64,000 bases of DNA, taken from the NCBI RefSeq assembly GCF_000003815.2, contig NC_049988.1, positions 15,327,016 to 15,391,015 on the forward strand, written 5' to 3'. The notes beneath the pieces were generated by a model. The model did not search any database and was not told the DNA's origin. It saw only the letters and a program-made list of their open reading frames with translations. The translations under genes and the position numbers were made by a program. The stretch comes from Branchiostoma floridae (lineage: Eukaryota > Chordata > Leptocardii > Amphioxiformes > Branchiostomatidae). Each line of letters begins with the position of its first letter. The stretch's first letter is position 1. Of the stretch, positions 1 to 20,251 are shown in pieces.

Positions 1-1200
1 CGTGGGACCACTGTATTGCGCATCCATAACGTTTTGGGCACCAAACTGCGTACGAATGATAGTTTTGTGCATGTCCAAAACTATCAGGCGAACTGGGCGT
101 ACATTTTCGTTTGCCTGCGTTCGTGAAACTGTCTAAAAACGATTCAGATGCGATAGAGGTGCGACTTGTCCGTGCGGCCGCGTATTGAAGAAATTAGTCA
201 AAATGTCGAAAAATGTCAAAACGGAACTCATGCGGCATGAAAATATACGCAGGTGTAAACCCACCTTAAGGTGGGTTCACACATGCGTATATATTCAAGT
301 CCGTTTGAGGTGCGTATGAAGCTCTTAGTCTCTACTAGGCTCCACAGGTCGTGGGAAAAATAGTACAAATTGGACAAATAAAGATTCATAACATGCCAGA
401 TGAGTTACATGTAGCTGACCGAGAAGTATGGTTAGCGACCCAGCTAACTCGTCTGACATGTTACCTGTTAACGTTTGTCCAATTTCTATTATTTTCACAA
501 CGACCTGTGGGGCCTGGTGGAGGCAAATACCCCCATGCGCGCCTCATACGGACTTAAATATATACGCAGGTGTGACCCCACCTTTAAGTCCATGCATTCC
601 TTTGACTACGAAGACCAGTTCGAGACAGAACGATGCAATCGCAGATCCTGAAATTGCAAGTCTAATTTGCAAGTGGGTGGGTTGGTGGGTGTTTGGTTTC
701 GGCCATGGATAAAAAAATATATGCTTTGTGAAGTTTTCCAATGTATTCATTCCTCTTTCTGTTAAGTCCATAAAAACAGGAACAAAATGCATAAAGGTGT
801 GGTTGCGGTATTTGACATCGTTATAATTCACCTTGCAATTCACTTTCTAATTCAGCCATTAGACACCCATCGTAACGACGGATCGTCATGAAGTTTGGTA
901 TGAAGATAGCTTAAAAGATCTTTGTGTAATTTGCATAATCAATGAGGAAAGTTTATAAGCCCGCTCCGTTCCATGCCCCATGGACCATGTGACATGTGTA
1001 AATGAGAACGAGAAGAACATTACTAGACGGCAAATTGGCGAAGGTGTGGGATCGTGGACCATTGTGCAACTACAGAAAACGCTATAAGCCTATAGTCCGC
1101 AATGACAGTCTAGGGTCAGTATGAACGTTAGTTTGAACGCAATTTTCGATTGAAATGTGTCTAATATAAAAAGTAATATTTCACAATCTTCTGTTGCTAG
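1..1200. other. Upstream non-coding or intronic stretch of the RTK gene
   Basis: Apart from the nested inverted-repeat elements I see no convincing exon here. The open frames overlap the repeats and have no domain signature. It is probably the intron between an unseen signal-peptide exon and the first Ig exon. Confidence 0.5.
268..590. mobile_element. MITE with a second MITE nested inside it
   Basis: The outer ends are inverted copies: AAGGTGGGTTCACACATGCG around 268-287 and CGCAGGTGTGACCCCACCTT around 565-584, with further matching TATATATTCAAGTCCG / CGGACTTAAATATATA sequence inside. Another inverted copy of the left end abuts it at 237-267. The inner element at about 328-524 has its own ends, CTACTAGGCTCCACAGGTCG and CGACCTGTGGGGCCTGGTGG. 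The inner family recurs at 20580-20704. Confidence 0.65.
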
Positions 1201-1521
1201 GTGAGCCCAGATTCACGTCCGTCCCGGGGAACATTGTAGCCACCATCGGAGAAGATGTTGTCTTTTATTGGGACGTCACTCACGAGCCCGAGCAAACAAT
1301 GCTTTTCATCGCCTATTCTACCATTGATGCCGGTTCTATCATGTATGGGCGTAATGATGATTTTACAGTCCTACCTCAATACGAAGGCCGTGTAGAAAGA
1401 GTCGGACAAGTAGGACTTAGGCTACGTCATGTCAAAGCGAGCGATTCAGGAACATACAAACTTCATATCCTTTTCCTCAACGACGTGGAGTTGGAAAACA
1501 CGGCCAGTCTGGATGTTAGAT
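1201..1521 (+). CDS. RTK exon: Ig1, V-like domain without the usual cysteines
   Basis: The exon follows a CTGTTGCTAG acceptor and ends before GTAAGC; both boundaries are phase 1, as is typical for single-exon Ig domains. The fold signature is clear in the segment ending [10 protein letters not shown]. Position B has VVFYWDV and position F has YKL, so neither of the two disulfide cysteines is present. Cysteine-less V domains of this kind are known at the N termini of CEACAM and SLAM/CD2-type adhesion receptors. An exon carrying the signal peptide must lie upstream of the window. Confidence 0.75.
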
Positions 1522-4500
1522 GTAAGCATCTTTACTAATTTCTCAGTGGTATATTCAATTCCCTGTGGGCTTTTGATGCCCTTTTTTTGCGCCACATAAG
1601 AGCCTCCAGTGTCCAGCTGTGAAATCTAAGAACAGACAATGGAGCCAGCTGAATAGAACATACTTTTATGGGGTAATAACCCAAATTTAACATTAGAAAA
1701 TGCGCAATTTGTTAGAACAAGCGGTAAAAGTGAAAAAATCACATACTAGTAGGTATTTGATAATTATTCTGGACAAAGAGAAGTCTATGCAGTTACTTTC
1801 AAAAGTTTGCCAACATATGTAAATAATTCTAAACATTTTCAAGCTATCAATTCCATTTGTTTTAACAATTCAAAACTCTTGTGACTGAAATATTCTTTCA
1901 TCTATTATATTTAACATTTATTACAAACATCATCTGAAAACCCACTCACTCGGTGACTTGGACTTCATTTACTACATATGGCATATAGTCGTTCTTGAAG
2001 CACACCAGCATAAAAAAAGGCAAGAAATGCTTGTTTTTGAAGAAAATAACATACTGTTATTTCAGAGTTTCACGTGCCTTTTTAATTTTTTTTGCAGATC
2101 CCCCGACTGGTACTTTCATACGTGTAGACCTATCCCAGAAAACACGGAAAGAAGAAAACGTTAACCGTTTTAAGGTTGCAGCTAAAAAAGGGACAGTTCT
2201 GAAATTGACGTGCGTAACAGACTCAAACCCTCCTGCTGAGTTCTCCTGGATCAAACCTACCGGGGACATTTCAGCTGTTAACAAGACATCAGGTGTTCTC
2301 GTCATTCCAAACGTCCGTGAAAACGACGCAGGGCTCTACAATTGCAGGGCGAGGAACGGCATCCAGCCAGATGGAATAGCAAGTATCAACGTGACTGTTC
2401 AAAGTAAGTAGAATCCATCTTTACGTTACGAATTTAAATCGAGAAAAATATAGCTTTGTGTAGGGAGAAAATATAGGGACATTTTGCTTTCAATGTACAT
2501 GTGCTTCTAACGGGATAATAACACAGTTACATGCTTAACTTTTGCACCGCATATTTGAAAGGCGTAATTGTTAGAATCGAGTCTGTAGACTCAAGTCATC
2601 AAACACCGTGCAAAACATTTGAATAACCGTAAACATGACATCTACAAACATAGTTATAAAGAGTGGGTTAAGACGAGTGAGCAATCCTTTGTGATGATTA
2701 ACACTATTGTTTTTTCTCGTATAACGTTAACGTTAAGAAGTATGAAGTATGATGAAGCAACAGGCACAGGTTTTGTGGCAAACACGCACCTAGCGATCCT
2801 TTGCTTAAAGTTAGTCGATGTGCAATATGCCATATGTGTGCAATAATTGTAATGAAATGTCTCATTTGTCAGATGAACCCTGTCAAATTTGTTTGGAGCA
2901 GCTGCTGTCCTGAGAAAGTCATCTGTCATGTACACTGCCATCTTGTCATATTTGTGCAATAGCATGAACGCCTGATGTGCAATATTTCATTCTGAACGTT
3001 GTTTCTATTGACTGGTAACATTATACGTTGTTTTTCTTCTAATGTACTGTTGTATTGTGAAGCCATGAATGGCGGTGGAAAGACTATTCTTTTAGACCCG
3101 AAACTGGAAGCAATCGCATGAAGATAGACATGCTGTCCCTGAGCAACAGTACCACACTTCTAAAAATCTTCTGCATGCAGATCCTCCGACGATGACGACA
3201 ACATACATCGTCTCTCCAAGGAGAGAGATAAGAAAAGGTGACGAAGTCAGAATCGGATGTCGTGTTGGCGACGCTCGACCCCTTCCTCAATTCCAATGGA
3301 CACGGAGCGACAGCAAGACAGAAGAACTTCCAGACACCGCAGTAGTAGACGAAGAGACGGGTCTCCTTACCATCGCTAGCGTGAAGCTGGAAGACGCTGG
3401 TGTTTACCGTTGTGTCGCCGACAATAACGTGAAACCCGCTGGATTCGCCCTGATCATGTTAAACGTCTCAGGTGGGAATTTCCGTCTTGGACAAGCCGCG
3501 CACTTTGTAGAGTCACACAAGTAGTAGCACGCTTTCCCACACCGTGATGTTTCTCGGCGTAGTTAAGGGACTGGGGTTTAGCTTTTTTGACTCGAGTTCG
3601 TACTCGAGTTGGTGCACTTTCTTTTCTTTCTATAATTGTTTTTCCATTTATCCGTACATCTTTTTTAAATGTTGCTTCATATACGATTTTGCTTCTTGCC
3701 CCCCCCCCCCCCTCCAAAAGGTTCTGAAACGCTTTGATATGTCAGTGACATGGCAACGACAGTTTATATGACAGAAAAATGCGTCGCTGATTTTCAAAAT
3801 CAAAAGAGAGTCGAGCGTATTTTTTTGCCGAAAAATCCATCCCATAACATTAGCTCGGTGACCCCAGTGGTCGAAAGAACACCTGTCGTATGGCTACCGA
3901 AAATGTTATTTAAAGCCAGCTATTTTCTTGCTGTGTGACGCCGGTTAAAAAGCACACACGCCGTCCACCTTCTAAAGCTGCTCTAGCTATCTGTTTATGA
4001 TCTTTTTTGTATTCTAATATTATGACAATATACGCCTTGGCAGTGCCTTTGGATCATGTGCTACATCGTATAATTCGGCCCGTCAATGAGTTTGTCGAAG
4101 AAGGCTAAGTACCTTATTTTGGTCCTTGGAGCGCGAACATCCTTATTGCAGCTGCCCCTCGCCATTCATGGTACAAGTATTTCTATCCGACACCTTTCTT
4201 CCTGAACAGATGCACTTTACCATAAAATAAGTTTTCTAGCATTTTTCCTGGTTACATGCACCTTGATTTTTTGCACAAAAAATACAAAATAGGTGATTAA
4301 TCGATGGAATTATCTTGTTTAGTCTGAATTCTCCGTATGTTTTCGTCTCGCCGTGAATTACTGATGAAGTGCATTAGCGTCATCCGTGATGTCAGATAGC
4401 AGGACGACTAATTGAACAGCTATCAGAAAAACAGAATATTCTACATGAAATATCATATGATATTGTCTTTAATTTTGTCGCTTTTGCAGCCGAACCCCTG

Positions 4501-7500
4501 ATTGGGCCTGTTGTCAACAGCACCAGAAGATCAGGGGAATGGATTTTACCTTTGGCTGTATCGCTGCCTTCAGTGGGATTTTGCCTTGTTTGCATCGCCG
4601 TTTTAGTCAAGCTGCATGTGAGGGCAAAGAGCAGTGAGTGTCCCCGGCAGCGCAATGAATTAGATGAAGAAGAACCAAGCGAGAACGACCCAATAATGTA
4701 CCTCAGTCCAGATCCTTCTGTTATACGTACGTATATTTCAAACATCTCCCTTCTTTGACACCATTATCTTCCCTTTTGATGGGTCGATTTACCATTTAAT
4801 AACTAAAACTTCTTTTTTGGCAGTTTTATCTGCGGCGACTGAAGAAGACCAAACGATGAATCCAATTTTGCAGGAATTCTGGGATTGCCTTATCAAAATG
4901 GATGCCGACCCTGTCCTGGTGTATTTTCAAAAAGACCAGGTAAGGAAACAATTCAACATTTAATTCCCCTGGCTTCCTTGCGATTATTGTAGGAGGCTGA
5001 ATTGTATGCATGCAATATAGTGATGTATATTTATTGCAAATTCTTGCCCGAGGGCTAATTGCAGGTACAAACAACATGTAAAATAAGGAAAATACAAAGG
5101 TGCTAGGAACTACATTCTATGACTATGCTATGCTAGTGTACATTATACTGGTTTTGTCGGGTTGACTTCTTCTCGTTAGGCAGTGGAAGACGAATTTACC
5201 CACTTCTTTTATAATGTGTGGATTCTTTGATTTAATATAATACAAATCTCTATTGGCCATATTCCTATCATTAACTGCTGGAATGGAACCGGGTGATAAA
5301 GAGCTGTCATCGGGGTTCTCATCACACCAAAGTTTCCTCTTGGTCTATGGGAAATTAGTCTACAGAAAGAAACTTGGTATATACTGATCATTCTTGCAAT
5401 GCTAATAACGCCCTTGGAATAAGAAGATACTATTATATTTTTCTGTGTCGTCTAGGTTTTGTCAGCCGACCACACCGCCGTGATCCGCTCGGCACCGTTT
5501 GTTGTGAACAAGCTGTTAAGGACAATCAACATACTGGAAGGAGACAAGACTCCTCATGTGCTCAGCAAGGCACTGAGGCACACCGAACAGAATCATCTTG
5601 CAGATCTACTTGAAGGAAAAGGTACGTCATTCACATGCACACGAGTGAATGGAATGAATGAAGTTACGTCATTGAGCGACATTCCTCAGGCAACATATAG
5701 TGAACGCCCACTAAATTGCAGTATGTTTCTTTACAATTTAAAAATGAACAGCAATAAACATACATACATAATCTAAACATTATAAATCTTACAATATTTA
5801 TTTTAGATAGCTGATAGCTGTGTATACATCCAGACGTCTATTGACGACGCTAGTGCTATGAGTTGTTAAGTATGTCGATAAGTAGTGTGGTCTTCCTATA
5901 CCTAGCAGTTCTACACTGGAATTGCGTTATCTGGTGTTTATTCATTTCTTGAAAAGGCTGTAAGTTGTAGTATTGTTGTGCTTGGAAAAATTGGTCGACC
6001 GTTTTAGATGTTTAAACTTATGTTCTTTTTGAATTGATATCCAGTGATGCCGTAAAAGAGACTAAAACTGATGATAATGCTTCGCGCTCCTAAGATCACG
6101 ACCTAGCATATAAGTAATCTTTTTGGATGCCCTAGCTGTATGAACTTGGTAGACATACTCTACTTTTTCCTAGTCCTCCCAGATGCCAAGTGTTTATCTG
6201 TGTTCAACGCCACGGACTCAACATTCAGCATCCGATTCAAGCCAGCCTATACCAACATCCAACACTTCGGTGATGTGGACAAGTATGCCGTCACGCTTGA
6301 AATAGCAGTCCTGGAGACTGAGGTAAAATCCTATTTAAGATACATGTATGTAGATTCAAATCTAATCTCATATTTAAGACATATGCATGAATATGAAAAA
6401 GGTACCCGTTTGGATTTGAGCGGCTTTAGCACCACTTTGCCTCAAGGTCGACATGGAACAAATACATTTTGTTTTGTATTGCTTGATATTAAACAGTCGA
6501 AACAACAAGCCACAAGCTATTTGACGGTAATAAGATCCCAAACAATTTACAAAATGATCTCTGTACATCTTGTCATTTTTCAGGCACACTCTGTAACTGG
6601 AAATGTTTTGTTTTCTGAACTATTGACAGCATTTTCATGTGAGATGATTTTTGATAATCGATATGTTTTTATTGCTGTCACAAACACGACAAAGTGCAAT
6701 TGAAATACCAGTTTTAGTTGACTCAACATTGTTTGCATGATTTCAGACAATCGCAACTCGCATTTTGAGTGCATCAGACAACCTACAGGCAGAGTTCACC
6801 AATCTGGCGTCAGGAACGTCATACAACGTCACCGTCGTCTGTGTGAGAGGCGAGACCAGGAGTGCCGGCGTAACCATCACCGTCACGACAAGTCATGTGT
6901 TTTTTGTTAGCTTGTTGTCTGTTTATTTGTTTGTTTACATTCAATGTCTACGCATCCTCTACCTACGGTGCGATTAACCTTGCTAAATGTTATTACGATA
7001 TACAATTTCAACTCGATGACCTATCCACTGTATGTTTTATCTTTTTTAATAGTCGGTGGCTATGAAGAACCGAGCAGTCTTTTGACAACATTCAGCGAAC
7101 AGAAAAGATCCCAAATTAGCCAGGTCCTCATCTATAAGGACAAAATCACTCTCATGGAAGCACTAGGAAAGGGTAGGTCATTCATTCTTTTAAAACAGTA
7201 CTAGTAACAAATATCATCGTATTCAAGCAAGGAAAATAGAATAGAATATCAGTTTATAACTCTCCTGGTCTCCCTAATGTCTATTCCCTACAAATAATGT
7301 CTTTTAAAAGTCCCCCAACTATGAAATGCTGGTTGATAATAGGTTCGATAATTTCAGGAAATTTTGGTGAAGTTCGTTACGGAGTCTACGTAACTCAGGA
7401 TAGGTGCGTGCCCTGTGCCGTGAAGACCCTATTTGGTACGTTCGTGGTTACACAGACTTTAAATTCAGTTGCTCATCACCTTACTGGCCTTACTGGTCCC

Positions 7501-10500
7501 TTGACCAGAGCTGGACGTTGGTACCCTGAGCTACTGTATACACCAACTCCGCCATCTTTGCCGATCATGCGCCTGAGCCTGGCTTTCAGCAAATCTGTTT
7601 CCTGGGTTGATTCAGTTAATATGTTCTCGGTCCATTTCTTCGCTTGTGTCACCGTCTATTGCTTTGGACTTGCCGCTGTATACGTTTCAAGAAGCCTCCA
7701 ACTCTTGTCACGTTGCCACACTAACTCAGTTCTCTCTTGTTGGCTGTTGTGAGATGGGTTAACGTTTTGGTCTGCTGGCTCCTCTGTTGATGTGCGTTTC
7801 TTCAGTTGTGATGGGTAATCCTGATTTGGGTTGTTGTCGTTTGTCATGCATTAATCAAGCCAAGTTGTACGTCTGTAGACACGGCATCGTTCCCAGAAAT
7901 GAAATCTCTCCTGTGGGAAGGACTTCGCATGGTGAACTTTAAGCACGACAATGTGTTACAACTCATCGGCATGTGTGTCCATGGTAACGAAGCTATGATC
8001 GTTCTGCCATACATGAAGAATGGAGATCTGCACAAATACCTAAGAGACAAACAGGTATCTAGTACTGTGTCGTGATTTTGGCAAGGCCATACTAGTCATG
8101 GCAATCGTTATATTAAATCTTTATCAAATCAACATTGCTAAAGTCATATCTAACACATAGGTGGAGTCGTACCAATTTTCAAAAGTTATAAAATCATCTT
8201 GCTGACGAATATTTTTTTAATAGTTTTATGACGTGTCATGTGTTTCAGCTTGCTACTTCCATTTCATTTCTAACAGGGCACTGATTTCACACCATGCAAA
8301 ACCTTATATGGTTATGTCAGATATTCATCATTTATAATCATTGATAGAGTCATGAATATGTAGTAGCATACTCCTGTGTTTAAAAGTATTACTATATGTA
8401 ACAACGTTATGTTTAGGAAGATTTTACACAAAGCCACTGAGAGTTCACGTTATTTGTAACGTTAGCTGTCACAGTCACTAATGGAGATCTGTATAACCAA
8501 ACCAAACCAAAACAAACCAAACCTAGGTCTGTGAATTGTTTTTGAAATGACGCAATATATAGATGTCCACGTCCGTCATCTAATCTCCTGCGATGTGTAC
8601 GGTTTTTGTAGACACTGCCTCTGGAAGATAACCTGCGACTTTGCTTGGAGATCGCCCATGGCATGGCATATCTGGCAGCTCAGGAAATTGTCCACAGAGA
8701 CCTGGCTGCAAGAAATTGCATGTAGGTATTTCTGATAGTGTCATTCGTCTTGCTCTGTCTATTTTTTCTGGTACAATTATTGTCGTATTTCTCTATTTGC
8801 AACAGATATGGACAACCTTGTGCTGGAAACGATAACCTGGTGTAATTTCAACACACGCCAAGAAGATTCTGCACTGACTTTCAAACTGATCAGTTTTCAA
8901 TAAGGAACGTCTTCTTTTCCAGGTTGGATCATAAGATGCAAGTGAAAGTAGCCGACTTTGGCCTTTGTCGGGACGTTCACGAAAAGGGCTACTACAGAAT
9001 ACAGAACTGGGAGGTACATGTACGTTTTGTCTGCGTGTTTTACTCCTCTCTCTTTCAAGCCTCCCCAAACGAGCTTTAGATGCATTGTCTGCCATATCGG
9101 CACTATGTAAGCAGCCAAATTAGTACACCATAAAAGAAAGACCGAAGAATTGATCCAATCCGCTGCTTATGTGACGTCACATTATGGACATAGAACACGT
9201 GACTCGGTGAGCTGTTGATCACAGATAGTTTATGTTGTCATTAGTCTAGTATTGATATAACAATAACTAAATGCAAGCATCTTGCTTATGGCGCCTGTAT
9301 AGGAACCATATATGCTGAACTGATTGTTATTCTACAATTTCTCTCTTCCTTCTGTGTGCTGTGCAACCTCAATAAACACCCGCAGAAGTGCCACGGATAC
9401 CTCCCCTCACTACAGGTGAAGCTACCGTACAAGTGGATGGCACCGGAGAGTCATGAAGAATACATATTTGACACAAAAACAGACGTGGTAAGTTTCCACA
9501 CAAAGTTGGTAATCAAAAGAAGTGCGTCAGTGCGAAAACAACTTTTGCTGTCTAGGGCTTACCGGCCCCCTTTGCGTCTTTAGGGTCCGGTTTTAAGTTA
9601 GCAAAGGAGGCTATCAATGCTTTATGACGAAATTTCTATTCCAGTGGTCCTATGGTATCGTCCTCTGGGAGATCTTTTCCGGGGGAAAGACACCTTATCC
9701 TGACGTGCCTAGCGCCCATTTCATAAGCTACCTGAGGGAAGGACACCGCATGAGTCGGCCCAACAGGTGTCCCATTAGATTGTAAGTACAGTTTGACGCT
9801 CAGCCGGGCCCTCTCCCGGTCCCAACAATAACCGCCCCAAATGTACTTGGAGGCTTGCTCTTCGTGACTTTAAATACCGGGTCACCGATATGTACATTGT
9901 GGTAAGAGATTCACAACAGAAGGATACTTCTTATGTTTCCCTTTATGACGCTAGGCTACCGTTCTCCGTAGTGATCACTGGCACAATACTTTCACTTGCT
10001 AATTCCCTGATTAGCAGTTGAAAGTATTGAGCCAGCGGTCACTGCGGAGGATGTTACACAAGCTATTATGACGCCTCAGGATTTGTTTCATTGTTTTCAC
10101 AGATAGAGTACCCTGTGAAGATTATCATTTCTCTGAATCACATCTTAGATTTTACTAACTTTGATTAAAAAAACTGTATCTACATTTCGTTTTAGGTACA
10201 ACGACGTTGTGAAACAATGTTGGCAGAAAGACCCAACCAAGCGACCATCCTTTAAAGAAATCCTGGCAAGAGCAGAACAAATTAGCAAAACCGTCAAGCA
10301 ACGACAAGAGGCTGACGATGTTTCCGTTATGCAACAACGAAGCCCCAGTGATTCACACTTCCAACATTCAAACCGCAACTCTGACCCCGAAAATATGCCT
10401 GACCCTGGCAGTGGCCCTTGCCCTGACCTTGCCCCTTGCCCTAACATTGGCCCTGGCCCTAACCCAAACCCAAACCCTGGCCCTCGCCCAAACCTTTGCC

Positions 10501-10709
10501 CTGGCCCTAACTCTAACCTTGGCCATGACCCTGGCCCTAACCCTAGCCTTTGCCCGGACCCTTACCCTGAGCCTTGCCCTGGTCCTAATCCTAACCCTGG
10601 CTATAACCCTAACCATGACCTTAAACCTAACCCTAGCTATTGCCCTAGTCCAGTGGACCCTGGTCCTGCCGTTGACCGACCCTGGCCTTGGCGCTGGCGC
10701 TGGTCTTAA
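1201..10709 (+). CDS. Receptor-type tyrosine kinase with Ig, CARD and FN3 domains (16 exons, 5' end outside window)
   Basis: I joined these exons by GT-AG sites and matching phase: 1201-1521, 2098-2403, 3181-3471, 4490-4726, 4824-4939, 5456-5621, 6183-6322, 6747-6891, 7053-7172, 7358-7435, 7879-8054, 8612-8721, 8923-9013, 9416-9487, 9645-9781, 10196-10709. They keep one open frame of about 1005 residues to a TAA. Domain order, numbered from the first visible codon: Ig1 1-106, Ig2 107-208, Ig3 209-305, transmembrane helix about 323-347, CARD about 390-478, FN3 about 479-573, tyrosine kinase about 605-870, Pro-rich tail to 1005. The kinase has every catalytic motif ([23 protein letters not shown]), so it should be active. 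Its [10 protein letters not shown] hinge and KLPYKW segment resemble the MET/TAM class. The signal-peptide exon is not visible. The CARD and FN3 exons fit by phase, but whether one mRNA carries all 16 exons needs transcript data. Confidence 0.7.
2098..2403 (+). CDS. RTK exon: Ig2, I-set domain
   Basis: The acceptor TTTTTTTTGCAG precedes the exon and the donor is GTAAGT; both boundaries are phase 1. The encoded domain has the canonical I-set pattern: LKLTC, then FSWIK, then NDAGLYNC. Both disulfide cysteines and the core Trp are intact. The sequon NVT lies near its end. Confidence 0.85.
3181..3471 (+). CDS. RTK exon: Ig3, I-set domain
   Basis: The exon lies between a TGCATGCAG acceptor and a GTGGGA donor, phase 1 on both sides. 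It encodes VRIGC, FQWTR and LEDAGVYRC, a complete I-set Ig domain with both cysteines and the core Trp. The linker starts with PPT, the same way the Ig2 exon starts, which suggests the two exons arose by tandem duplication. Confidence 0.85.
4490..4726 (+). CDS. RTK exon: transmembrane segment and acidic juxtamembrane region
   Basis: The exon starts in phase 1 after CTTTTGCAG. After a short stalk with an NST sequon comes a hydrophobic run of about 24 residues (from WILPLAVSL to CIAVLVKL), then HVRAK and further basic residues, the usual stop-transfer arrangement with a cytosolic C-terminal side. An acidic stretch (DEEEPSEND) and the tyrosine motif PIMYLSPDP follow. The donor GTACGT gives a phase 1 exit. 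This is the only confident membrane helix of the joined model. Confidence 0.8.
4824..4939 (+). CDS. RTK exon: first part of the CARD
   Basis: The acceptor TTTTTTGGCAG and donor GTAAGG bracket 116 bases, entering in phase 1 and leaving in phase 0. It encodes [20 protein letters not shown] and then VYFQKDQ. That matches helix 1 and helix 2 of a caspase recruitment domain, where an amphipathic helix with a conserved LI pair is followed by a short helix rich in Leu. Together with the next exon it makes an 80-residue death-fold domain. Confidence 0.7.
5456..5621 (+). CDS. RTK exon: second part of the CARD
   Basis: It enters in phase 0 after GTCTAG and leaves in phase 1 at GTACGT. It encodes [28 protein letters not shown] and [18 protein letters not shown]. 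These fit CARD helices 3 to 6: the LS/T-x-x-D/E start of helix 3, the kLL.....G turn after helix 4, and the alternating Leu pattern of helices 5 and 6, as in the CARDs of RIPK2 and NOD1. CARDs assemble by homotypic contact in innate immune and cell-death signalling. This assignment is by eye; a death domain is the main alternative. Confidence 0.72.
5753..5776 (+). promoter_or_regulatory. Possible alternative stop and poly(A) signal after the CARD
   Basis: If the donor at 5622 is not used, the frame reads on for about 50 codons and stops at the TAA at 5774-5776. An AATAAA hexamer sits at 5753-5758. Intronic polyadenylation here would give a kinase-less Ig-TM-CARD receptor. AATAAA occurs often by chance in AT-rich introns, so this is only a possibility. 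Confidence 0.25.
6183..6322 (+). CDS. RTK exon: first half of a fibronectin III domain
   Basis: The exon enters in phase 1 after CCTCCCAG and leaves in phase 0 at GTAAAA. It encodes [20 protein letters not shown] and then [11 protein letters not shown], the A to C' strands of an FN3 domain. The read-through 5' of the exon from an ATG at 6140 spells [16 protein letters not shown], which looks like a signal peptide but is also what a polypyrimidine tract would encode. Confidence 0.7.
6747..6891 (+). CDS. RTK exon: second half of the fibronectin III domain
   Basis: It enters in phase 0 after TTTCAG. It encodes [19 protein letters not shown] and then GVTITVTT, the diagnostic FN3 E-F-G strands with the L..G..Y.V.V pattern. 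The 3' boundary is uncertain: the phase 1 donor at 6892 reads GTCATG, a poor match to consensus. Reading through gives [18 protein letters not shown], a hydrophobic run that could be a second membrane helix if another phase 1 donor (GTCTAC, also poor) near 6944 were used. Confidence 0.65.
7053..7172 (+). CDS. RTK exon: kinase juxtamembrane segment and start of the glycine loop
   Basis: The acceptor is TTTTTTAATAG and the donor GTAGGT; both sides are phase 1. It encodes a polar segment with GGYEEP, then [16 protein letters not shown], the first strand of the kinase N lobe and the start of the nucleotide-binding loop. The juxtamembrane tyrosine in GGYEEP is a possible phosphorylation site. Confidence 0.8.
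7358..7435 (+). CDS. RTK exon: glycine loop and catalytic lysine
   Basis: The exon enters in phase 1 after TTTCAG and leaves in phase 1 at GTACGT. It encodes [12 protein letters not shown], completing the GKGNFGEV loop, and PCAVKTLF, whose Lys is the ATP-contacting residue of strand 3 (the VAIK position). Confidence 0.85.
7879..8054 (+). CDS. RTK exon: helix C, N-lobe strands 4-5 and hinge
   Basis: It enters in phase 1 after GTCTGTAG and leaves in phase 0 at GTATCT. The Glu of SLLWEGLRM is the helix C residue that pairs with the catalytic lysine. [15 protein letters not shown] is the classic strand 4 region, and [16 protein letters not shown] is the hinge with a MET/TAM-like sequence. Confidence 0.87.
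8612..8721 (+). CDS. RTK exon: catalytic loop HRDLAARN
   Basis: It enters in phase 0 after TTTTTGTAG and leaves in phase 2 at GTAGGT. It encodes [20 protein letters not shown] and continues DLAARNC. The DLAARN form is that of receptor tyrosine kinases rather than Src-type DLRAAN kinases. Confidence 0.9.
8923..9013 (+). CDS. RTK exon: DFG motif and activation loop
   Basis: The acceptor CTTTTCCAG leads into [23 protein letters not shown] is intact, and the paired tyrosines in GYYR occupy the position of receptor kinase autophosphorylation sites. The exon leaves in phase 0 at GTACAT. Confidence 0.88.
9416..9487 (+). CDS. RTK exon: P+1 loop and APE motif
   Basis: Phase 0 on both sides, between CTACAG and GTAAGT. 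It encodes [18 protein letters not shown] and then [16 protein letters not shown] is the P+1 loop and APE motif of a tyrosine kinase. Confidence 0.88.
9645..9781 (+). CDS. RTK exon: kinase C lobe, helices F-G
   Basis: It enters in phase 0 after ATTCCAG and leaves in phase 2 at GTAAGT. It encodes [20 protein letters not shown] and [13 protein letters not shown], the strongly conserved helix F to helix H region. Confidence 0.88.
9964..10049. repeat. Short hairpin element in the last RTK intron
   Basis: The two ends are near-perfect inverted copies: CTCCGTAGTGATCACTGGC at the left and a matching GCCAGCGGTCACTGCGGAG at the right, with inner arms around AATACTTTCA and TGAAAGTATT. The 86 bp form a long stem, typical of a miniature inverted-repeat element. 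Confidence 0.6.
10196..10709 (+). CDS. RTK terminal exon: kinase C-terminal helix and Pro-rich tail
   Basis: It enters in phase 2 after CGTTTTAG. It encodes [15 protein letters not shown], the end of the kinase domain, then a polar segment, then about 100 residues of Pro-Asn, Pro-Gly and Pro-Cys units, and stops at TAA (10707-10709). The DNA is a degenerate array of CCCTAACCCTGG-like units. Confidence 0.85.
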
Positions 10710-10750
10710 CCATAAACCCTGGCCGCAGCGCAAGCCCTAGGCCTAACCCT
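10381..10750 (+). repeat. Degenerate telomere-like CCCTAA / CCCTGG minisatellite inside coding sequence
   Basis: The tail of the kinase is written by imperfect six-base units (CCCTAA, CCCTGG, CCAAAC, CCTTGC). Because the unit length is a multiple of three, the frame stays open; other forward and reverse frames across the array are also open. The array extends past the stop codon into the 3' UTR. Confidence 0.8.
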
Positions 10751-11043
10751 AACTCAGCCGATCCATCCTACTAGCGATCAAATGATGAGGTTTACAGTAC
10801 CATCAGCAATAGCCAAAAAGCTGATTTGTCGCCATTCCAATATCACATGTGTGATTGCGAAACATATAGGTTATTTCATACATGACTTATCTATGACAAG
10901 ATGGAAGGATGCCTACTACTATCTATGACATTTAGAGATCTTTCAATCTGACGAAACAATTGGCACCAGGGGAAGGGTACTGGTGTTTGAGATTTCAACA
11001 CTTGTAACAAATCAAGGAGAAAGCATATCCTTCCGTCACACCA

Positions 11044-11861: not shown

Positions 11862-12027
11862 ACAGTCGAATCGTTTGCGAACATGGTGCATTGANNNNNN
11901 NNNNNNNNNNNNNNNNNNNNNNNNNNNNNNNNNNNNNNNNNNNNNNNNNNNNNNNNNNNNNNNNNNNNNNNNNNNNNNNNNNNNNNNNNNNNNNACAGTC
12001 GAATCGTTTGCGAACATGTTGCATTGA
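11862..12027. repeat. Direct repeat bordering the assembly gap
   Basis: Both copies run from ACAGTCGAATCGTTTGCGAA to GCATTGA. The gap either hides a tandem array or is an artefact of two overlapping contig ends. Confidence 0.85.
11895..11994. other. Assembly gap of 100 N
   Basis: Exactly 100 unknown bases, the conventional placeholder for a gap of unknown size. The 33 bases before it (11862-11894) and after it (11995-12027) are the same sequence with one G/T difference. Confidence 0.98.
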
Positions 12028-18599: not shown

Positions 18600-19691
18600 C
18601 TAGGATGTTGTTTCAGTAGTGGATAAGCCCCGTGATGTAGGAAACAATTCTTCACACAGATCTGGATTTCTCTGTCTCAGATCATCCCTGATAGCAGTCA
18701 TCTTTACTCCCTGCTCTATATTCTGATCATGTGGGCGGTAGCGGCAAGCGTGCATGACCACAAGGTCTCCATCCTCGTTAAACCCAGGGGACCCAGAGGA
18801 TCCAAGCCCCATGAGAGAACAGTAGGTTACCCTACGTGGATCATTAAGCTGAGAAGGCTGAGGATTGAGTTTCCGATACACCCCTACATATGGGTGTGGA
18901 TAAGGGCAGTTGGGATCCATGACTTTGGGGTCACCACCAGGGTGCCCAACCAAAGTGATAGTACCTGAATGCTCTACATCGCAAACCAGGGTTCCAAGTG
19001 CTGGCAGATGGGTCTTAACTGTTTCAGTTAGGTCAGCAGGAATTGAGAATTCGAGGACACAGTAGTCAAGATCATCGATGTTGCTGAGGGCAACCTGTTT
19101 TATGAATTGGAATCTTATTGGCTTAAAGGTCTTAAAGTCCTTCAAGAAGTTGAATTCTACAAAGGCATTCTCTGGAGGGCCTTTGTTAGCTATTTCATCA
19201 AGAACATGCTTACAGGTCATCACATACTTTGTGCCAACCCGAAAACATGTTCCGCATGCAAAGATTGAAAGGCGACCACCAGATTGTACTTCCACAAAGA
19301 TGATCCCAACTGACCTTGCAGCTGGCAGAAGTTTTTGCAGGAGCAGAATTGTGACTGGACCAAACTTCTGGCAGCTGACCGGCTCAGGTAGATTATAATT
19401 ACCCTGAGCAGAACCTGTGTCAGTTCCCTCTTCCTCTTTTATGACCTCTTTTATGTCCTTATAAAGCCTCTCAATGTCCTGGCTTAATTTGGAACATCTA
19501 TTTAGCAAAGACCTTAGAAGATCCATGTTATGTCTATTGTGTCCACGACGTTCAATGTTGTTTGCACCTTCAGTAGCACTGCGGGATATGTCCTCAAACA
19601 GCTTTTGTATTGATACAAGCACAGGATCCCTCAGATGTACGTCCCAGGCTGCACCAGCCCCTTGTGAGTCAGTGTTCTCGTCTGAGGCACC
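18600..19691 (-). CDS. FAM111-like peptidase, terminal exon with catalytic domain
   Basis: The exon starts after CCGTGTGTCTGCAG with GASDENTDSQGAG and carries the entire peptidase domain without interruption. The open frame extends further upstream through the intron, but the strong acceptor and the exon 1 phase favour this boundary. It ends LSTTETTS-stop. Confidence 0.85.
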   Translation of the reverse strand, partial: GASDENTDSQGAGAAWDVHLRDPVLVSIQKLFEDISRSATEGANNIERRGHNRHNMDLLRSLLNRCSKLSQDIERLYKDIKEVIKEEEGTDTGSAQGNYNLPEPVSCQKFGPVTILLLQKLLPAARSVGIIFVEVQSGGRLSIFACGTCFRVGTKYVMTCKHVLDEIANKGPPENAFVEFNFLKDFKTFKPIRFQFIKQVALSNIDDLDYCVLEFSIPADLTETVKTHLPALGTLVCDVEHSGTITLVGHPGGDPKVMDPNCPYPHPYVGVYRKLNPQPSQLNDPRRVTYCSLMGLGSSGSPGFNEDGDLVVMHACRYRPHDQNIEQGVKMTAIRDDLRQRNPDLCEELFPTSRGLSTTETTS

Positions 19692-20251
19692 CTGCAGACA
19701 CACGGAAAAAAACAACAACCGAAATCCTAGTTCTGAATAGTAAAATACAAGACTATTTGATACATTTATATTGATAAGGAAAGAATGTGAATGCCCATAT
19801 GCAGCCCTCTGTTCGATATTTGTATATTTTCCTGAGGTGTATTCAGATCTATCATAATTATCTTTTGTAAAATTTGTTACAAGCAAATGATGTTGACTTA
19901 TAGATTGCATAAAGGGTCTTTGCATAAAGCGGCATTGCCCAGGTGGTCCTTACATATAGAGGTCCATTTATTGACTGTTCAACAAAGTTCTGTGCACTGA
20001 GTTTTTTTTTAATCACTGCGTATGCTCCATAAACATAAAAGCTCTCTGTAACTTTACAACTTGTACATTTAATAAGAAGGTACTAGTAGCCTGAGCAAAA
20101 ATGATTTGAGATACATCTACTGCAATGATATAAATATGATCACCTCTGAGGATTCCTGGCTGAACTTAAGCTGCTCCTCCTCCTGACATTCCATGCCTTC
20201 AAGTTTGTGATCCACTGGTGGGACTGAAGCTGGCTGTTGAGTGGCATCCAT
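18600..20251 (-). CDS. FAM111-like trypsin-fold peptidase (399 aa)
   Basis: Two coding exons on the minus strand, 20251-20144 (36 codons) and 19691-18600 (363 codons plus stop), join in phase 0. After a polar N terminus and a helical segment around SKLSQDIERLYKDIKEVIK comes a chymotrypsin-fold peptidase domain. His198 in CKHVLD, Asp245 in DDLDYCVL and Ser335 in GLGSSGSPGF fit the triad, so the enzyme should be active. The GSSGSP motif and domain layout resemble the vertebrate FAM111 peptidases, which act in the nucleus and clear protein-DNA crosslinks; human FAM111A also restricts some viruses. The ubiquitin-like N-terminal repeats of human FAM111 are not seen. The start chosen is the ATG in frame with exon 2; an out-of-frame ATG lies five bases upstream. 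Confidence 0.82.
20144..20251 (-). CDS. FAM111-like peptidase, first coding exon
   Basis: It encodes MDATQQPASVPP to LKFSQESSE, a polar acidic leader, and ends at a GTGATC donor in phase 0. On the 5' side an acceptor (TAACAACAG at 20257-20258) leaves five untranslated bases before the ATG, which implies an upstream non-coding exon. Confidence 0.7.

What the first reader, a model, noticed from the sequence alone, without database searches (positions are those of the whole stretch)
4490..9781. A receptor tyrosine kinase that carries a CARD between its membrane helix and kinase domain
Seen: exons in consistent phase encode three Ig domains, a membrane helix with stop-transfer charges, an 80-residue segment with the six-helix CARD pattern ([32 protein letters not shown]), and an intact tyrosine kinase. 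Known: CARDs make homotypic filaments in innate immune and death signalling (RIPK2, NOD1, MAVS), while receptor kinases are driven by dimerisation. I know of no receptor tyrosine kinase with a CARD. Inference: ligand-driven clustering of the Ig domains could nucleate a CARD assembly, or a CARD adaptor could cluster the kinase, directly linking surface recognition, tyrosine phosphorylation and death-fold signalling.
Basis: partly seen in the sequence, partly recalled or inferred. Interest (0 to 1): 0.88.

Follow-up and report, generated by a model that had tools for sequence, protein, structure and literature searches.

The report
Lancelet receptor kinase carrying a CARD
This animal genome, probably a lancelet's, has a small family of cell-surface receptor kinases that carry inside the cell a CARD, the docking domain of cell-death and immune proteins, joining two signalling systems normally kept in separate proteins.

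Summary
Three further genes 11 Mb away on the same contig carry the same modules in the same order with matching intron phases. The CARD is under purifying selection (dN/dS 0.22-0.30 in the 5 of 6 pairs not saturated), as are FN3 and kinase; all modules give the same split of the copies. This argues against a mis-joined gene model. Each CARD alone is below Pfam's cut-off, but the family profile fits CARDs better than death domains, DEDs and shuffles. Weak points: no transcript could be examined; the window copy's FN3-to-kinase splice donor is the weakest of 58 scored; one paralog has a frameshift. I read it as a receptor tyrosine kinase with an intracellular CARD and FN3, a new variant of a known kind. 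CARD-driven clustering is plausible but untested.

The parts
1201..1521 (+). Ig domain 1 exon (phase 1-1), joined upstream to a signal-peptide exon outside the window at C10:15323121-15323196
2098..2403 (+). Ig domain 2 exon (phase 1-1)
3181..3471 (+). Ig domain 3 exon (phase 1-1)
4490..4726 (+). Transmembrane exon (phase 1-1): hydrophobic helix [27 protein letters not shown], then RAK, an acidic linker and a YLSP (YxxP) motif
   Evidence: hydropathy maximum 2.55; membrane segments also in the 3 paralogs; YxxP at the same place in 3 of 4 copies
4824..4939 (+). CARD exon a (N-terminal part; starts in phase 1, ends in phase 0)
5456..5621 (+). CARD exon b (C-terminal part; starts in phase 0, ends in phase 1)
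6183..6322 (+). FN3 domain exon a
   Evidence: Pfam fn3 28.9 bits against cut-off 25 for the joined FN3; paralogs 27.1-30.4 bits
6747..6891 (+). FN3 domain exon b; ends at an atypical donor CAA|GTCATG (paralogs GTGAGT)
7053..7172 (+). Juxtamembrane-like exon up to the start of the kinase glycine loop
7358..7435 (+). Kinase exon 1: rest of glycine loop GKGNFGEV and ATP lysine CAVKTL
7879..8054 (+). Kinase exon 2
8612..8721 (+). Kinase exon 3: catalytic loop HRDLAARNC
8923..9013 (+). Kinase exon 4: DFG and twin activation-loop tyrosines GYYRI
9416..9487 (+). Kinase exon 5: APES motif (another in-phase acceptor, exon start 9386, would add ten residues)
9645..9781 (+). Kinase exon 6
10196..10709 (+). 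Last kinase exon and C-terminal tail, stop at 10707-10709; the tail from about 10403 is a degenerate CCCTAA-like repeat read as a Pro/Asn/Gly-rich sequence

Best explanation
A genuine single-pass receptor tyrosine kinase: signal peptide, three Ig domains outside, one membrane helix, then inside a CARD, an FN3 domain and a MET-like tyrosine kinase. It is one of four such genes on one chromosome-sized contig. Shown by sequence: module order, in-phase splice sites, intact catalytic motifs, selection on the CARD. Inferred mechanism: ligand binding or homophilic contact of the Ig domains clusters the receptor; clustering lets the kinase phosphorylate its twin activation-loop tyrosines in trans, and brings the membrane-tethered CARDs together so that they recruit or seed one of the genome's many CARD proteins (adaptors, caspases or NLRs), with the FN3 domain as spacer. 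The reverse direction (a cytosolic CARD assembly clustering and switching on the kinase) is equally compatible. The CARD module is bounded by phase-1 introns on both sides, so exon shuffling could have inserted it and alternative splicing could remove it in frame.
For: Four copies with the same module order. End phases agree at 15 of 15 junctions in three copies and at 13 of 14 in the fourth, the fourteenth being unassignable because of a frameshift; paralog sites were partly chosen among those that keep the window's phase, so this agreement shows that such sites exist, not an independent test. dN/dS of the CARD 0.22-0.30 (5 of 6 pairs; one saturated), FN3 0.20-0.38 (6 of 6), kinase 0.07-0.36 (5 of 6). 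All four modules give the same split WA|BC. CARD identity: profile-profile score 35.9 (88.5% probability) against 8 genomic CARDs, versus 20.9 for 10 death domains, 10.4 for 10 DEDs, 9.7 for the FN3 set, and at most 19.0 in 60 column shuffles; best solved-structure match is the ASC CARD (E 7.8e-4), with CED-3, APAF-1 and CED-4 CARDs at E 0.05-0.75. A clear membrane segment in 4 of 4 copies, basic residues after it in 3 of 4. Catalytic motifs in 4 of 4 copies. Kinase closest to MET among solved structures (248 bits).
Against: No transcript was seen. Pfam CARD scores are below cut-off in 4 of 4 copies (20.7, 18.6, 17.9, 23.6 vs 23.9). The profile-profile match leaves out the first 26 columns, and TAL-effector repeats rank above CED-3 in the solved-structure list. 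The window copy's FN3b donor is atypical, so its CARD-FN3 part may often fail to join the kinase; reading through gives a stop after a short hydrophobic tail. Poly(A)-like hexamers occur in 3 of 4 CARD-FN3 introns, and in the window copy an in-frame ATG just before FN3a would start a hydrophobic stretch. Copy C has a frameshift in Ig3. An FN3 domain inside the cell is unusual. Nothing tests CARD binding, kinase activity or ligand.
Confidence: 0.62

Rival explanations
1. Two adjacent genes wrongly joined: an Ig-TM-CARD receptor gene followed by an FN3-kinase gene, as reported for other lancelet gene models.
For: Chimeric lancelet gene models refuted by ESTs are documented (PMC4967905, passages). 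FN3 is usually an extracellular domain (general knowledge). The CARDb-FN3a introns of W, A and C hold AATAAA/ATTAAA hexamers (chance not computed), and in W an in-frame ATG in the intron would read [15 protein letters not shown] straight into FN3a.
Against: The CARDb-FN3a gap is only 561, 289, 364 and 1090 bp in W, A, B and C, with a donor and an acceptor in matching phase in 4 of 4. No spliced start exon with a hydrophobic stretch was found in any of the four gaps (one non-hydrophobic candidate in W), the in-frame intronic ATG occurs in W alone, and FN3a has no Met in 4 of 4. The FN3-kinase half would lack a membrane helix after FN3 in A, B and C: read-through there meets a stop after two residues. 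All modules share one split.
Confidence: 0.12
2. The window copy itself no longer makes the kinase: the degraded FN3b donor makes it mostly a kinase-less Ig-TM-CARD-FN3 receptor (decoy or pure CARD receptor), while A and B are the working CARD kinases.
For: Donor CAA|GTCATG scores -2.1 against a next lowest of 0.7 among 58 donors, and three paralogs have GTGAGT at the aligned site. Read-through adds a 28-residue hydrophobic tail and then a stop.
Against: The kinase exons of the window copy have no stop and all catalytic motifs looked for, with dN/dS 0.13 and 0.07 against A and B, so loss, if real, would be recent. An assembly error or polymorphism at that site is possible.
Confidence: 0.2
3. 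The segment is another helical bundle (a different death-fold subfamily or an unrelated domain), not a CARD.
For: Below Pfam cut-off in 4 of 4 copies; CARD_2 scores slightly above CARD in copy A; the first 26 columns are outside the profile-profile match, and the death-domain score (20.9) is slightly above all shuffles too; the only structure run, on exon b alone without an alignment, was low confidence (mean pLDDT 64, pTM 0.31) though all-helical.
Against: The family profile clearly prefers CARD over DD, DED, FN3 and 60 shuffles, and its best solved-structure match is a CARD over positions 12-90.
Confidence: 0.08
4. The CARD is present but is only a passive spacer or autoinhibitory module that makes no CARD-CARD contacts.
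For: CARD surface residues were not tested; the CARD (aa identity 0.49-0.58 in the five pairs other than B-C) is less conserved than the kinase (0.59-0.72 in the same pairs).
Against: Purifying selection, 33 invariant columns and a length of 93-94 in 4 of 4 copies.
Confidence: 0.2

Closest known systems
MET/RON receptor tyrosine kinases
   Same: Closest kinase domain among solved structures (MET 248 bits, RON 232); twin activation-loop tyrosines.
   Different: MET's Sema-PSI-IPT ectodomain (recalled) is replaced by Ig domains; CARD and FN3 lie between membrane and kinase; I see no MET-type YVxV docking pair in the tails (pattern recalled; W, A and B tails read). A survey found one Met RTK in B. 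belcheri (PMC6374515, passages).
RIPK2 and IRAK kinases (death-fold plus kinase)
   Same: A death-fold domain and a kinase in one chain (recalled).
   Different: Cytosolic, Ser/Thr-type kinases, no ectodomain or membrane helix (recalled).
Eph receptors (RTK plus SAM domain)
   Same: RTK that carries a self-associating helical domain inside the cell (recalled).
   Different: SAM lies C-terminal to the kinase and is not a death fold (recalled).
Amphioxus death-pathway hybrid receptors such as TNFR-caspase
   Same: Same lineage (if this genome is a lancelet's), membrane receptor wired straight to death-pathway domains, cDNA support reported (PMC2575513, section 9 read).
   Different: No tyrosine kinase; the 12 of 13 places shown for kinase, CARD and transmembrane in that paper name no such hybrid.
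Sea anemone 'NG3' (kinase-death-TIR)
   Same: Tyrosine-kinase-type domain with a death-fold domain (PMC5094078, passages).
   Different: Death domain rather than CARD, with TIR and Roc/COR; no Ig receptor described in the passage.

Membership tests
Receptor tyrosine kinase | Signal peptide | tested here: met
   MSFGNVPGSALLLFLAGVSTLTVSS exon upstream of the window, phase-compatible, hydropathy peak 1.67; no dedicated predictor was run
Receptor tyrosine kinase | Extracellular domains and a single membrane helix | tested here: met
   Ig Pfam matches in W; one clear hydrophobic segment per copy (peaks 1.86-2.97) beyond the signal peptide, plus one marginal 1.55 peak in W
Receptor tyrosine kinase | Complete tyrosine kinase domain with catalytic residues | tested here: met
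   PF07714 295.3 bits for W; glycine loop, Lys, [14 protein letters not shown] in 4 of 4 copies
Receptor tyrosine kinase | Ligand-driven dimerisation and kinase activity | not testable with these tools
   needs experiments
CARD | Passes Pfam PF00619 or PF16739 cut-off | tested here: not met
   0 of 4 copies; PF00619 20.7, 18.6, 17.9, 23.6 vs 23.9
CARD | Profile similarity to CARDs above other death folds and shuffles | tested here: met
   35.9 vs DD 20.9, DED 10.4, FN3 9.7, 60 shuffles up to 19.0; ASC CARD E 7.8e-4
CARD | Six-helix death fold | tested here: inconclusive
CARD | CARD-CARD binding | not testable with these tools
   needs experiments
MET family | MET-like kinase domain with twin activation-loop tyrosines | tested here: met
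MET family | Sema-PSI-IPT ectodomain | tested here: not met
   the ectodomain's matches over Pfam cut-off are Ig families; no Sema, PSI or IPT row among the 14 families listed; the defining feature is recalled
FN3 domain | Passes Pfam PF00041 cut-off | tested here: met
   28.9, 29.7, 27.1, 30.4 vs 25, 4 of 4 copies

The most novel reading that the evidence does not exclude
A class of receptor tyrosine kinase in which a membrane-tethered CARD is a working oligomerisation and recruitment module, so that surface recognition, tyrosine phosphorylation and CARD (caspase/NLR/adaptor) signalling are one molecular event; possibly with an alternatively spliced, CARD-less form of the same receptor.
Probability: 0.45. 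Interest if true: 0.86.

Novelty: new variant of a known kind. Interest (0 to 1): 0.72.

Why it matters
Receptor tyrosine kinases and CARD assemblies are two major ways of signalling by clustering, normally linked only through chains of intermediate proteins (general knowledge). A natural receptor that holds both would be a ready-made test of whether surface clustering can seed a death-fold assembly, or a death-fold assembly can switch on a receptor kinase. It would also be a well-supported hybrid receptor in a lineage where claimed hybrids have been shown to be gene-model errors (PMC4967905, passages), because four old copies, three of them intact in this assembly, keep it.

Tried and rejected
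A second membrane helix after FN3 in the window (read-through [26 protein letters not shown]) was considered, as it would change topology; rejected because the three paralogs read SE-stop there. The EGFR entry 9p9u as best kinase match was rejected: it is two EGFR kinase copies in one chain scoring 154 bits each. TAL-effector rows in the CARD profile search (E 0.02-0.13) are repeat artefacts with 0 passing stretches; a designed protein (7vty, E 0.32) and a dynein (2rr7, E 0.47) also appear. In the kinase search of the genome the only matches above 60% identity are exons of the four genes; other matches over 100 residues or more are at most 43% identical and shorter ones at most 55% among the rows listed (151 matches; 150 of 557 candidates scored, list cut). 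Comparing by eye the 149 CARD rows with those kinase rows, I saw no other CARD within about 40 kb of a kinase; both lists are capped and miss intron-split domains (the four CARDs of this family are absent). A structure of exon CARDb alone was uninformative. Ten paper searches gave no listed title or abstract start describing a CARD-bearing receptor tyrosine kinase; I read passages of 7 papers and one section of one of them, none whole.

Limits of my own counts: paralog exon ends were chosen partly to keep the window's phases; in copy C the Ig3 end is arbitrary and the TM end was set 3 bases too far, so 58 of 59 donors entered the donor score; copy A's last exon was ended past its stop. Loci L026, L027 and L029-L032 were fetched and not analysed.
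Full report
WHAT THE SEQUENCE SHOWS. The window is bases 15327016-15391015 of a chromosome-sized contig (C10) in a 513.4 Mb genome of 431 contigs. Reading 1-11000 gives sixteen exons with AG acceptors and GT donors in matching phase, open from Ig1 to a stop at 10709. A signal-peptide exon that fits in phase lies at C10:15323121-15323196, 3.9 kb before the window. Order: signal peptide, Ig, Ig, Ig, membrane helix, CARD (two exons), FN3 (two exons), kinase (juxtamembrane exon plus seven). Pfam supports Ig (Ig_3 107.7 bits), fn3 (28.9, cut-off 25) and tyrosine kinase (295.3 bits); CARD is the best family for its segment but below cut-off (20.7 vs 23.9, E 4.3e-4).

FOUR COPIES. A search with the 93-residue CARD found three further two-exon CARDs on the same contig, 11 Mb away. 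Fetching 19.8 kb around each (29.7 kb for C) showed that all three carry Ig, CARD a, CARD b, FN3 a, FN3 b, juxtamembrane and kinase exons in the same order. Membrane-helix exons were found by reading the Ig3-CARD gap, and hydropathy supports them in 4 of 4 copies. Copies A (C10:4290946-4300546, +) and B (C10:4373430-4362451, -) are open from Ig1 to stop. Copy C (C10:4401409-4419663, +) lacks a detectable Ig1 and has a frameshift at the end of Ig3, so it may be damaged or wrongly assembled. End phases agree at 15 of 15 junctions in W, A and B, and at 13 of 14 in C, the fourteenth being the frameshifted Ig3. The paralog sites were partly picked for keeping the window's phase, so this is consistency, not an independent test.

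SELECTION. Pairwise Nei-Gojobori estimates: CARD dN/dS 0.22-0.30 in 5 of 6 pairs (W-A saturated); FN3 0.20-0.38 in 6 of 6; kinase (juxtamembrane to K6) 0.07-0.36 in 5 of 6; Ig2-3 0.24-0.44 in 4 of 6. B-C has dS 0.33-0.53; the other pairs lie between 0.79 and saturation, so most copies are old and the estimates rough. No stop occurs in any of the CARD, FN3 or kinase models of that call. All four modules give the same best split, W+A against B+C, as expected if they travel as one gene; for the kinase the margin is small (0.58 against 0.67 and 0.69).

IS IT A CARD? Alone, 0 of 4 copies pass Pfam (20.7, 18.6, 17.9, 23.6 vs 23.9), though CARD or CARD_2 is the top family each time. The four-sequence profile scores 35.9 (88.5% probability) against eight CARDs of the same genome, 20.9 against ten death domains, 10.4 against ten DEDs, 9.7 against the FN3 set, and at most 19.0 in 60 column shuffles against the CARDs. 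The match covers columns 27-90 of 93 only. The death-domain score is also a little above its own shuffles (17.3), as remote kinship of death folds would predict. Among solved structures its best match is the ASC CARD over positions 12-90 (E 7.8e-4); CED-3, APAF-1 and CED-4 CARDs are weaker at E 0.05-0.75; most TAL-effector rows (E 0.02-0.13, no passing stretch) rank between or beside them, and a designed protein and a dynein appear at E 0.32 and 0.47. A fold of the second CARD exon alone was helical but of low confidence (pLDDT 64, pTM 0.31). I take it as a divergent CARD.

ONE GENE OR TWO? Mis-joined lancelet genes are a real hazard (PMC4967905, passages). Here the CARD-FN3 gap is 561, 289, 364 and 1090 bp in W, A, B and C, with in-phase splice sites in four copies. 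No spliced start exon with a hydrophobic stretch lies in any of the four gaps; FN3a has no Met; after FN3 three copies read straight into a stop, so no second membrane helix exists there. Against this: W has one non-hydrophobic start-exon candidate and an in-frame intronic ATG that would read [15 protein letters not shown] into FN3a, and W, A and C have a poly(A)-like hexamer in the gap. The ATG is not in A, B or C. A two-gene arrangement would have to keep matching splice sites four times for no reason, so I leave its odds at 0.12.

WEAK POINT IN THE WINDOW COPY. The donor after FN3b is CAA|GTCATG, the lowest of 58 donors scored leave-one-out (-2.1; the next, 0.7, is the arbitrary C Ig3 end); A, B and C have GTGAGT. 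The window copy may splice poorly into its kinase, giving a kinase-less CARD receptor, or the base may be an error or allele. Its kinase exons are intact.

HOW IT PROBABLY WORKS. Topology follows from signal peptide (seen for W), one membrane helix and, in W, A and B, basic residues after it: Ig outside, CARD-FN3-kinase inside. The kinase has the catalytic motifs and the MET-type twin tyrosines GYYRI in 4 of 4 copies; MET is its closest solved relative. A YxxP motif sits between helix and CARD in 3 of 4 copies; pYxxP as a CRK-type SH2 site is recalled. Inferred: clustering of the Ig domains drives trans-phosphorylation and brings CARDs together to recruit CARD partners, of which this genome has many (149 rows), or a CARD assembly clusters the kinase. 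The CARD module is phase 1-1 on both sides, like the Ig and FN3 modules, which suits exon shuffling, described as extreme in lancelets (PMC4284660, passages), and predicts an in-frame CARD-less splice form.

COMPARISON. Amphioxus is known for hybrid death-pathway receptors with cDNA support, such as TNFR-caspase (PMC2575513, section 9). A sea anemone gene joins kinase, death domain and TIR (PMC5094078, passage). Lancelet Met itself is reported as one gene in B. belcheri (PMC6374515, passages). My ten paper searches listed no CARD-bearing receptor tyrosine kinase, but the amphioxus tyrosine kinase survey of 2008 is not held, so prior description cannot be excluded.

VERDICT. Architecture: very likely real (about 0.88). 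CARD identity: likely (about 0.9). Mechanism: plausible, untested. A new variant of the receptor tyrosine kinase kind.

Noticed in passing
window 6891-6977: Atypical splice donor CAA|GTCATG after FN3b; read-through adds a 28-residue hydrophobic tail and a stop, a possible kinase-less isoform.
   Followed up: partly
C10:4401409-4419663 (L023, L024, L028): Copy C has a frameshift at the end of Ig3 and no detectable Ig1, while its CARD, FN3 and kinase exons K1-K6 have no stop.
   Followed up: partly
window 10403-10709: Degenerate CCCTAA-like tandem repeat read in frame as a Pro/Asn/Gly-rich C-terminal tail.
   Followed up: no
genome, e.g. C12:0.60-0.98 Mb, C8:24.05-24.14 Mb, C7:24.41-24.45 Mb: Dozens of tyrosine-kinase matches lie in single open frames of roughly 900-1000 residues, many in clusters, suggesting expanded intronless receptor-kinase-like genes.
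   Followed up: no
window 18603-19949 (-): 449-residue open frame with a Trypsin_2 peptidase domain (PF13365, 42.7 bits, cut-off 27.6).
   Followed up: no
C17:18.28-18.90 Mb: Dense cluster of dozens of death effector domain matches, with death-domain matches in the same stretch.
   Followed up: no
window transmembrane exon 4490-4726 (end) and matching exons of A and B: YxxP motif (YLSP, YQSP, YLCP) at the same distance before the CARD exon in 3 of 4 copies; absent in C.
   Followed up: partly
window 11895-11994: Run of 100 N in the window.
   Followed up: no
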